DNA of 28,623 nucleotides from NCBI GenBank assembly GCA_946482635.1, contig CAMLSG010000053.1:1-28623 (forward strand), in the 5' to 3' direction. Every line of letters begins with the position of its first letter. The stretch's first letter is position 1. The stretch is from an uncultured Duganella sp. (GTDB lineage Bacteria > Pseudomonadota > Gammaproteobacteria > Burkholderiales > Burkholderiaceae). The translations under genes were made by a program, and so were the position numbers. Below are positions 8,057 through 10,726 of this stretch, piece by piece. Below the pieces are notes generated by a model, which was not told the DNA's origin, did no database searches, and saw only the letters and a program-made list of their open reading frames with translations.

Positions 8057-8086
8057 TAAAAGAAAAAGGCAGCCGAAGCTGCCTTT
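8057..8086 (-). terminator. Intrinsic terminator behind the displaced atpC 3' fragment
   Basis: On the minus strand: GGCAGC-TTCG-GCTGCC (8068-8083) followed by a T-rich run. The TTCG loop makes a very stable hairpin. It is a near copy of the terminator behind intact atpC. Confidence 0.85.
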
Positions 8087-8096
8087 CCGTTGCGAC

Positions 8097-8366
8097 GAGA
8101 AGCAGGGATTAGCCCTTGATCTTGCGCAGTTTTGCGATCGCTGCCAGCTGGCCGATAGCCGCTGCCAGTTCCGCTTGTGCTTTCGCGTAGTCGATGCCGG
8201 TCTGCTTGTTGGCCAGGCTTTCTTCCGCCAGTTTCTTGGCAGCTTCAGCTTTGGCTTCATCCAGGTCATGACCACGGATCGCGGTGTCAGCCAGGACCGT
8301 CACGGCGTTTGGCTGCACTTCCAGCAGGCCGCCGGCGACGAAGACGAACTCTTCTTCAGCCTGGCC
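8097..8366. repeat. 270-bp perfect direct repeat, distal copy (atpC 3' end)
   Basis: Every base matches 10457-10726 at an offset of 2360, read line by line. A further 24 bp (8063-8086) matches after a 10-bp stretch holding 5 mismatches. It marks the distal end of the inserted DUF262 cassette. Confidence 0.97.
8109..8366 (-). pseudogene. atpC: Truncated atpC (codons 57-141 and stop)
   Basis: It encodes the last 85 residues of the epsilon subunit, identical to the intact atpC, and begins abruptly at the glycine equivalent to residue 57 with no start or ribosome site. The break falls 5 bp after the stop codon of the DUF262 gene, which reads a different frame, so no fusion protein results. It is the displaced original or duplicated 3' end left by the cassette insertion. 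Confidence 0.92.
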
Positions 8367-8371
8367 CGAGG

Positions 8372-10357
8372 CTAGATTTTCCTGTTAAGGAAGTTTAACC
8401 CAAGCGCTTTAATTTTGTTTTCTCGATCACCGATCGTAATGCCCCAACGCTCCTCAAGGAAAGTAAGCATTTTTATCCCTCGGTCAACTATGTCCTCTGC
8501 GCGCCAATCGGAGTAAGTAGCCACTTCATTCTCAGAATAGCTTCCATATCGATATCCTACCGTATCTTTGTCACGTCCAACTTTCTCAGGGAAAGCGCGA
8601 TTACCTAAACTAGCATTCTTTGGAGACGATAACGCCAGCAGATTTCCAAGAGAATTTCTTAACAAACGTTTATGCGTTGATCCAAATTTTCCGAATCGAT
8701 CGACCCAATAGGGATCTTTAGCTCGCTGAGGGTATATATGCTCTACAGAAACATAGTCAGATTGGTAGTCTTCTTGACTGAACTGTTCCCAATTGATTTT
8801 TTCACGGCTACTCTTAGATCTACTCTTTAAGTAGAGCTCATATTCGAAAAGGAAGTAGTTAATGCTTTTCCATCCATAATATCCAGGGCCATTCTTAATC
8901 CAGTTGTGAATTGTGTCCGCAACGCTCTCTTCCTTAAGAGCATCATCAACCAGATTCGTATAAAAAGTAATCAGTTCTTCAATTTTGATCTTACCTTTAA
9001 AGTACTTAACGACTTCCATATTTACGTGTCTATTTCGATAAGCGAGACGTTGAGCCCCCAGTCGCATAGACGTAACAAATTGCCAACGCTCAAACGCTGA
9101 AATAAGGGCGAGCCGCTTGGTTGAGTTCTTTTCCAGTAAGTAGGTCCCAAGTAGTAGGGGCGACGCGTCATACCCGTTAAGGCGCCCCAATCGCTCTAGT
9201 GCGACTTTTTCGCTATCGGTAAAACCGCTTTGATCTGGCGTACTCAGCTCAAAATACGTTTCCACAGCTGCTTTCAAGTGCGAAACATATTTGTTTATGC
9301 ATTCGACATCAATAAGTGGAAGCTTCTCTGCGACATCCTCAAATATGCGCTTACGCGTGAATAGCCGTCCCAACAAGAACGCAGAAGTTCTATCGACAAC
9401 CAATGCGTAGCGACTCACAAATTTTCGTAACTCGTCTTCATCGGACGGAATATCGGCACTGATGTAGAGATGATAGTAAATTGCGAAATGCGTTCGCAGC
9501 AATTCGTCGTCCGCGAGCGGCCGCTTATCGTTGCGCCCTAAATTGTGATAAACGGTTTTCCAAGCTTCATTAATTACTTTTCTTAATTTTGCTCCATCGC
9601 CGTTTTCAATTGTTGGCATTTGAGTTGCCAAATATATAAGTCGATTTTTGAGCAGTTCCAACGCGGAAAGCGGCTTTCCACGGTTATTCATGGTCTCAAA
9701 TGCCACAAATACGTCTATCTCTTTAGCTATTTCGTAAACGTTGAAAACCAGTTGCTGTGTGACCTTTGTAAAAACTTCTTCCAATCGCTTCGGGGATAGC
9801 TCAGCGAGCTTTGCGGTAAAAAATGCTTTGGCAGACCTCAGATTCTTCGTATAAATCGTTTCTTCGTTCGTCGAATGATTTTCCGAGTGTTCATCGAATA
9901 TTTTGGTCTTTAGATATTCATAGCTTGGATTGTCTTTTTCATATCCAAAGATGTAGGCTCGGGACAAGCTCCCGGCCTTATGATCAAAGATATATTTTTT
10001 TCGGATCGCGTCGACTGGCGTGAAGTTGAGTTCTGTTGCATTCGTTTTCTCGAGAATGCATTGCAGGAGCACCGTAATTGTGGTGAGTCGTTGTTGACCG
10101 TCAACGACATAATAGGGAGCATATCGGCGCGATACAATAATCCATGTGTCATCCTCCCATTTTTCCCACGTTGCCGCCGGCACTGCCTCTAAAGTAAGCA
10201 CTCCAGTGTAGTGACTTTTGCCTTCCACAAGTTGCTCTATATCTGACCAGAAATCACTAAGGTGAGTCTCCTCCCAAGAATAGCCGCGCTGATAGTCTGG
10301 AATTCGAAAGAGACATTCATTGAATATTTTGGAAACCGTAAGCAATTCAGTTTTCAT
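8372..10357 (-). CDS. DUF262 and DUF1524 (HNH) domain protein, GmrSD/SspE-like, probable phage defence nuclease
   Basis: 661 residues. The N-terminal DUF262 domain carries IPDYQRGYSWE (19-29), the nucleotide-binding DGQQR (86-90) and FETMNNRGKPLSALELLKN (220-238). The C-terminal DUF1524 domain carries the HNH-like SVEHIYPQR with H540, then NSLGNLLALSSPKN (568-581). The same order occurs in fused GmrSD type IV restriction enzymes, which cut phage DNA with modified bases, and in SspE of phosphorothioation-based defence. No dnd/ssp or methylase genes are visible, so it probably acts alone. Base composition and codon use are much more AT-rich than any neighbour, showing recent transfer. AAGG lies about 8 nt before the ATG. 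The stop is 5 bp from the distal repeat. The target modification is unknown. Confidence 0.9.
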   Translation of the reverse strand: MKTELLTVSKIFNECLFRIPDYQRGYSWEETHLSDFWSDIEQLVEGKSHYTGVLTLEAVPAATWEKWEDDTWIIVSRRYAPYYVVDGQQRLTTITVLLQCILEKTNATELNFTPVDAIRKKYIFDHKAGSLSRAYIFGYEKDNPSYEYLKTKIFDEHSENHSTNEETIYTKNLRSAKAFFTAKLAELSPKRLEEVFTKVTQQLVFNVYEIAKEIDVFVAFETMNNRGKPLSALELLKNRLIYLATQMPTIENGDGAKLRKVINEAWKTVYHNLGRNDKRPLADDELLRTHFAIYYHLYISADIPSDEDELRKFVSRYALVVDRTSAFLLGRLFTRKRIFEDVAEKLPLIDVECINKYVSHLKAAVETYFELSTPDQSGFTDSEKVALERLGRLNGYDASPLLLGTYLLEKNSTKRLALISAFERWQFVTSMRLGAQRLAYRNRHVNMEVVKYFKGKIKIEELITFYTNLVDDALKEESVADTIHNWIKNGPGYYGWKSINYFLFEYELYLKSRSKSSREKINWEQFSQEDYQSDYVSVEHIYPQRAKDPYWVDRFGKFGSTHKRLLRNSLGNLLALSSPKNASLGNRAFPEKVGRDKDTVGYRYGSYSENEVATYSDWRAEDIVDRGIKMLTFLEERWGITIGDRENKIKALGLNFLNRKI

Positions 10358-10417
10358 AGGCTACCTTAAGGGAGGAGTCTGAAACGTAGATTAGGTGCCA
10401 ATATCATATCTTACAGG

Positions 10418-10447
10418 CAAGAAAAAAGGCAGCCGAAGCTGCCTTTT
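10418..10447 (-). terminator. Intrinsic terminator of the atp operon (behind atpC)
   Basis: On the minus strand GGCAGC-TTCG-GCTGCC (10428-10443) is followed by TTTTTTCTT. It separates atpC from the inserted DUF262 gene, so the cassette gene needs its own promoter in the roughly 60-bp AT-rich leader or read-through. Confidence 0.88.
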
Positions 10448-10456
10448 CTTTGCACT

Positions 10457-10726
10457 GAGAAGCAGGGATTAGCCCTTGATCTTGCGCAGTTTTGCGATCG
10501 CTGCCAGCTGGCCGATAGCCGCTGCCAGTTCCGCTTGTGCTTTCGCGTAGTCGATGCCGGTCTGCTTGTTGGCCAGGCTTTCTTCCGCCAGTTTCTTGGC
10601 AGCTTCAGCTTTGGCTTCATCCAGGTCATGACCACGGATCGCGGTGTCAGCCAGGACCGTCACGGCGTTTGGCTGCACTTCCAGCAGGCCGCCGGCGACG
10701 AAGACGAACTCTTCTTCAGCCTGGCC
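10457..10726. repeat. 270-bp perfect direct repeat, proximal copy (within intact atpC)
   Basis: Identical to 8097-8366. Here it forms the functional 3' end of atpC, so the insertion restored rather than destroyed the gene. Confidence 0.97.

What the first reader, a model, noticed from the sequence alone, without database searches (positions are those of the whole stretch)
8063..10726. One-gene DUF262-DUF1524 defence cassette inserted at the 3' end of atpC with a 270-bp target duplication
Seen: a 661-codon AT-rich gene lies between two identical 270-bp copies of the end of atpC, at a constant offset of 2360 bp. The proximal copy completes a working atpC and the distal copy is orphaned. The stop of the cargo gene is 5 bp from the distal repeat. 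There is no integrase, transposase or terminal inverted repeat. Known: DUF262/DUF1524 proteins include the type IV restriction enzyme GmrSD and SspE, and restriction-modification genes have been reported to insert with long target duplications. Inference: this is a minimal mobile defence unit that uses an essential housekeeping gene as its landing site and rebuilds it, a tRNA-like strategy on a protein gene without its own recombinase.
Basis: partly seen in the sequence, partly recalled or inferred. Interest (0 to 1): 0.85.

Follow-up and report, generated by a model that had tools for sequence, protein, structure and literature searches.

The report
Defence gene captured beside atpC
A single imported anti-phage-type gene sits behind an ATP synthase gene whose end was copied in the process; the copy looks like a footprint of ordinary DNA recombination rather than the attachment site of a new mobile element.

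Summary
A 661-codon GmrSD-type (DUF262-DUF1524) gene, 43% GC with 56-64% GC on either side, lies between two exact 270-bp copies of the atpC end (8097-8366 and 10457-10726; offset 2360). The upstream copy completes atpC; the downstream one is a headless remnant. Removing one copy plus the 2,090-bp insert leaves AtpC unchanged.

The mobile-unit interpretation is not supported. The only large ORF between the repeats is the cargo. 0 of 74 genus genomes have a second atpC end above 90% identity. None of 7 close relatives shows the predicted empty site. Cargo relatives are not clearly enriched for flanking repeats (1 of 70 loci; 2 of 454 random windows). In 392 family genomes one (G131) shows a similar structure at atpC around an unrelated peptidase gene. 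A control gene, rho, has tandem remnants of its end in 2 of 392, though with no gene between. Gene-end duplication therefore looks like a by-product of recombination, not a property of this cargo.

The cargo-side terminator differs from the clade type, which the remnant keeps; this fits import of cargo DNA anchored in atpC. I file it as a new example of 'insertion with long target duplication'.

The parts
10469..10894 (-). functional atpC (F0F1 ATP synthase epsilon), 141 aa
   Evidence: Pfam ATP-synt_DE_N and ATP-synt_DE; 97-100% aa to the 6 close relatives with a full-length match
10457..10726 (-). proximal copy of the 270-bp repeat: codons 57-141 of atpC, stop, 12 nt
   Evidence: exact match to 8097-8366
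10416..10456 (-). proximal terminator hairpin, -21.6 kcal/mol; 5' flank differs from the clade type and the end of the 3' arm lies in sequence not shared with the distal copy
8367..10456 (-). 2,090 bp between the exact repeats (proximal terminator, spacer, cargo)
8372..10357 (-). cargo: 661-aa GmrSD-type DUF262-DUF1524 protein, GC 43%
   Evidence: Pfam PF03235 and PF07510; PADLOC HEC-06 E 4.5e-47, then Orf5, SspE, mREase_IV; motifs
8097..8366 (-). distal (orphan) copy of the repeat, headless atpC end
8056..8096 (-). distal terminator with clade-type 5' flank, -16.4 kcal/mol
7363..8046 (-). SDR gene directly behind the orphan copy (16 bp from the terminator stem)
   Evidence: Pfam adh_short; orthologue near atpC in 6 relatives

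Best explanation
[quoted passage not shown] A foreign piece of DNA carrying a terminator and one GmrSD-type gene entered the chromosome anchored in the atpC 3' end. It joined the recipient inside atpC, between codons 56 and 57, by a non-homologous junction (homology-facilitated illegitimate recombination, or single-crossover integration of a circle). The result is complete atpC - cargo - leftover atpC end. The cargo most likely acts as a solitary modification-sensing restriction nuclease. Shown: structure, intact atpC, foreign composition, conserved motifs, differing terminators, a similar structure at atpC elsewhere with another gene. Inferred: the recombination route and the cargo's activity.
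For: The remnant keeps the pre-terminator sequence type of 6 of 7 close relatives while the cargo-side one differs and forms a longer hairpin. Cargo GC is 43%; its best relative in 294 family genomes is 71% aa, in another genus. The atpC-SDR interval varies among close relatives: peptidase, DUF2306+kinase+regulator, LysR+oxidoreductase (labels by eye). A PoNi-like immunity pair sits on the other side of the SDR, without match there in 6 relatives. G131: a 232-bp, 94% remnant plus a 48-bp atpD scrap around an M28 peptidase ORF. Control gene rho: remnants in 2 of 392 genomes, no gene between. ComEC above cut-off in 7 of 7 relatives (weak, as 5 of 14 control genomes also pass). Precedent passages: PMC5361080, PMC3784515; PMC2884548 reports 10-18% of variable segments flanked by direct repeats.
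Against: No donor with an atpC-cargo linkage was found: 0 of 392 family genomes hold the proximal terminator type within 2 mismatches. I recognised no clear microhomology at the joint. The two 270-bp copies do not differ, and identity per 100 bp to six relatives shows no plain foreign tract in the atpC coding part. No exact empty site is known, so a further event (loss of genes before the SDR) must be assumed. The rho remnants hold no inserted gene, so they support end duplication, not gene capture.
Confidence: 0.64

Rival explanations
1. Self-promoted insertion with long target duplication as proposed for restriction-modification genes: the nuclease's own cuts drive insertion and the duplication.
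For: The pattern is described for all types of RM systems (PMC3031569 passage; PMC1643837 passage); the cargo is a restriction-type nuclease.
Against: Cargo relatives are not clearly enriched for flanking repeats: 1 of 70 loci against 2 of 454 random windows. A similar structure surrounds a peptidase ORF in G131, though defence-type genes lie beyond it, and end copies occur behind rho.
Confidence: 0.15
2. Non-autonomous site-specific element: the 270-bp atpC end is an attachment region used by an integrase supplied in trans, tRNA-style.
For: The host gene end is rebuilt and the insert carries its own terminator.
Against: No recurrence in 74 genus genomes; no recombinase ORF between the repeats; 270 bp is long for an integrase core (recalled); the G131 repeat differs in length and has an atpD scrap.
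Confidence: 0.07
3. Tandem duplication of the atpC region first, then replacement of the front part of the second copy by the cargo.
For: Tandem atpC genes exist in the genus: G036 and G360.
Against: Those second copies are diverged, full-length and unlike the window; the 7 close relatives have one match to the atpC end each.
Confidence: 0.1
4. Assembly artefact.
For: Exact repeats are a common source of misassembly (general knowledge).
Against: The copies differ in terminator flank and neighbours; a 2,150-bp contig elsewhere fits a break at both repeats (inference).
Confidence: 0.04

Closest known systems
Insertion with long target duplication of restriction-modification genes (Nobusato et al. 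2000, seen only as a citation; described in passages of PMC3031569 and PMC1643837)
   Same: restriction-type gene between long direct repeats of target DNA, no recombinase ORF
   Different: a solitary type IV-like nuclease without methylase; target is the 3' end of atpC, left functional; no empty-site strain known
Homology-facilitated illegitimate recombination, e.g. T6SS immunity gene arrays (passages of PMC5361080)
   Same: conserved upstream gene as anchor, foreign gene added behind it, old piece left behind as an orphan
   Different: here the orphan is an exact copy of the anchor's own end; donor unknown
GmrSD family type IV restriction enzymes, SspE, DndI
   Same: both Pfam domains; DGQQR and HNH-type motifs; best solved match is DndI 9jfl by sequence and by Foldseek E-value
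   Different: solitary gene; by eye no dnd, ssp or BREX genes in the window ORF list (not scanned); substrate unknown
Integrative elements that rebuild a host gene 3' end (recalled)
   Same: host gene end restored, second copy left at the far side
   Different: no integrase ORF, no recurrence at the site, repeat longer than a usual att core

Membership tests
GmrSD-type (DUF262-DUF1524) nucleases | both domains in one chain | tested here: met
   PF03235 116.2 bits and PF07510 54.6 bits, above cut-offs
GmrSD-type (DUF262-DUF1524) nucleases | DGQQRLTT motif and (I/L/V)(E/D)H(I/L/V)xPQ with two Asn 9 residues apart (from passages of PMC4619093) | tested here: met
   VVDGQQRLTT present, D86-R90 invariant in 23 sequences; VEHIYPQ at 538-544; N572 and N581 invariant. 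The longer published pattern ...TT(I/L/V)xLL was searched and missed.
GmrSD-type (DUF262-DUF1524) nucleases | fold like solved members | tested here: inconclusive
   model pLDDT 71.6, pTM 0.60; DndI 9jfl E 2.6e-9 but TM 0.33-0.36; BrxU 7p9k E 0.23
GmrSD-type (DUF262-DUF1524) nucleases | modification-dependent cleavage | not testable with these tools
   needs biochemistry
Insertion with long target duplication | long direct repeats of target sequence flanking the insert | tested here: met
   270 bp, 100%
Insertion with long target duplication | empty site with one copy in a close relative | tested here: inconclusive
   7 relatives have one atpC end, but in 6 other genes lie between it and the SDR, and the G001 contig ends before the SDR
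Site-specific integrative element | own recombinase | tested here: not met
   the only large ORF between the repeats is the cargo
Site-specific integrative element | recurrence at the same site | tested here: not met
   0 of 74 genus genomes with a second atpC end above 90%; 1 of 392 family genomes, with other cargo and other repeat extent (capped scoring, lower bound)
Homology-facilitated illegitimate recombination | homologous anchor on one side, non-homologous joint on the other | tested here: inconclusive
   anchor atpC and differing terminators; donor arrangement not found

The most novel reading that the evidence does not exclude
A recombinase-free defence cassette that moves as a 2,360-bp circle (270-bp atpC end plus 2,090-bp insert) using only host RecA and the atpC sequence shared by relatives. 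It would carry its own terminator so that each single crossover rebuilds atpC and insulates it.
Probability: 0.06. Interest if true: 0.75.

Novelty: new member of a known kind. Interest (0 to 1): 0.3.

Why it matters
It is a clean example of how a single defence gene can enter a genome behind an essential operon without harming it. With the G131 and rho cases it suggests that headless gene-end copies behind housekeeping genes (here 1 of 392 genomes for atpC and 2 of 392 for rho, lower bounds from two genes only) may be a usable footprint of recent recombination in other bacteria.

Tried and rejected
atpC as a recurrent landing site: rejected. Paraburkholderia L129 looked like a second case with a DUF262-DUF1524 gene (136 bp, 84%), but its host gene is a secretin with inovirus relatives and the rate over all loci is not clearly above background (both background hits are overlapping windows of one locus). 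In one search, 8 of 80 loci had a repeat of at least 30 nt with one copy on each side, 6 of them direct; L126 has 239 bp at 85%, but 3.4 kb downstream; only L129 is long and tight. Donor by proximal terminator type: 0 of 392. Terminator-like hits elsewhere are a common hairpin, not a source. Promoter scan: no site found upstream of the cargo on its strand, and no more sites than in shuffles. First genome-contig scan with the single protein found no relative; the second, with alignment A1, kept 80 loci of 436 relatives. Cargo profile in order genomes: 2 of 330 at E <= 1e-40, too sparse for more statistics. In some searches only 2 candidates per genome were scored, so double hits there are lower bounds.

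Full report
1. What is there. The repeat is real and exact: 8097-8366 equals 10457-10726 over 270 bp, offset 2360, with 2,090 bp between. It is the only direct repeat of at least 60 bp and 85% in the window. Read along the minus strand the order is atpC (10469-10894, complete), a terminator, a spacer, the cargo gene (8372-10357), 5 bp, the orphan atpC end, a second terminator, 16 bp, the SDR gene. If one copy and the insert are taken out in silico, the AtpC protein is unchanged.

2. The cargo. It has the GmrSD N- and C-terminal domains above Pfam cut-offs. PADLOC's best label is HEC-06 (E 4.5e-47), followed by Orf5, SspE and type IV models. The DGQQRLTT core, VEHIYPQ and two Asn 9 residues apart are present and conserved in 23 sequences, as in the published description of GmrSD motifs (passages of PMC4619093). 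The best solved match by sequence and by Foldseek E-value is DndI, 9jfl, on a model of modest confidence and with a low TM-score (0.33-0.36). 7,443 proteins match at E <= 0.001 among 7,998 scored; the best other than the cargo itself is 75% identical. Plasmid relatives at E <= 1e-60: 33 records, 31 of them Acinetobacter; among the 15 listed, two show a BREX PglX gene under the match. Phage relatives: 9 records at E <= 1e-10. I expect a solitary modification-sensing nuclease; that is inference. No promoter-like site was found upstream on its strand. GC is 43% against 56-64% in the flanking bins 7001-8250 and 10501-12000. Any relative occurs in 30 of 294 family genomes; the best is 71% identical, in another genus.

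3. The neighbourhood. The window's own assembly is not held. Close relatives by the atpC end are G335, G001, G003, G234, G128, G007, G010. Each has one atpC end and no match to the cargo in the fetched stretch. In the six where the SDR is in view, other genes lie between atpC and the SDR (labels by eye); the G001 contig ends 3.3 kb behind atpC. So the predicted empty site was not seen. The window also carries a PoNi-like immunity pair (5709-7343) on the other side of the SDR, with no match in those six stretches. The spot is recombinationally active.

4. Which copy is native. Before the hairpin, the orphan copy has the sequence type of 6 of the 7 relatives (G003 differs); the proximal copy differs from the orphan at 5 positions within 10 nt. 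The proximal hairpin is longer and part of its 3' arm lies in DNA not shared with the orphan side. So the proximal terminator most likely arrived with the cargo. No genome of 392 has this terminator type within 2 mismatches, so the donor is unknown. Inside the 270 bp there is no difference to trace, and identity per 100 bp to six relatives shows no plain foreign tract in atpC.

5. Is it a mobile unit? Tests against: (a) 0 of 74 genus genomes have a second atpC end above 90% identity; G036 and G360 have diverged, full-length tandem atpC genes, and G018 a distant match on another contig. (b) Of 392 family genomes, 23 have two matches to the atpC end; in 22 they are far apart or on other contigs, in one, G131, 1.35 kb apart. 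The two samples overlap. (c) Of 80 loci with cargo relatives, 70 have 600 bp on both sides and one of them (L129, inovirus-like secretin) has a repeat of at least 100 bp within those 600 bp; random 2-kb windows from the same loci gave 2 of 454 (both in L111), Fisher p 0.35. None of a further 36 locus stretches (L031-L060, L070-L075; partly overlapping, some with partial matches) has a repeat bracketing the cargo; L072 and L074 have repeats to one side.

6. The telling comparisons. G131 (L178) shows a similar order with another gene: atpC, an apparently complete M28 peptidase ORF, a decayed atpC end (232 bp, 94%) with a 48-bp scrap of atpD, then putAbiC and a SIR2-domain gene. That defence-type genes lie just beyond leaves open a link between such imports and defence genes. 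Same-genus genome G106 has other genes directly behind atpC. As a control I ran the 3' end of rho through a family sample of the same size: 5 of 392 genomes have two matches. In G166 (79 bp, 97.5%) and G198 (a 296-bp, 92.6% repeat including 66 bp of rho) a headless rho end lies directly behind rho; in the other three the second match is on another contig. The rho remnants have no gene between the copies, so they are evidence for end duplication as a general process, not for gene capture.

7. Mechanism. I favour recombination anchored in atpC with a non-homologous joint between codons 56 and 57, or single-crossover integration of a circle; both leave this structure. Published precedents: one-sided homology with orphaned pieces in Vibrio (passages of PMC5361080), duplications arising in transformation (passages of PMC3784515), restriction genes with long target duplications (passages of PMC3031569 and PMC1643837), and 10-18% of variable segments flanked by direct repeats (passage of PMC2884548). 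ComEC was found above cut-off in 7 of 7 relatives, as in 5 of 14 control genomes, which permits but does not show transformation.

8. Verdict. Observation confirmed; interpretation partly supported; a new example of a known pattern. One four-term literature query on atpC as an integration site gave 0 papers, which says little.

Noticed in passing
window 5709-7343: Two PoNi-like (T6SS nuclease immunity) genes between the 5035 gene and the SDR; no match there in the six close relatives with the region in view.
   Followed up: partly
L178 (G131) 3561-7346: atpC-end remnant with an atpD scrap around an M28 peptidase ORF, followed by putAbiC, SIR2-domain and (by eye) ParA-like genes: another import behind atpC.
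   Followed up: yes
L199 and L201: Headless rho 3' ends directly behind rho, 79 bp 97.5% and a 296-bp 92.6% repeat, without a gene between, found as control hits.
   Followed up: partly
L069 (G036) and L082 (G360): Tandem full-length but diverged atpC genes in two genomes of the genus.
   Followed up: partly
L129 7717-10211: DUF262-DUF1524 gene between two 84% copies of the 3' end of an inovirus-like secretin gene in Paraburkholderia solisilvae.
   Followed up: partly
window 24312-25109: ORF that looks by eye like a REP-associated (Y1-type) transposase; not scanned.
   Followed up: no
window 8063-8088 and 10423-10448: The hairpin GGCAGC-TTCG-GCTGCC recurs in the genus: short hits elsewhere in many genomes.
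   Followed up: partly
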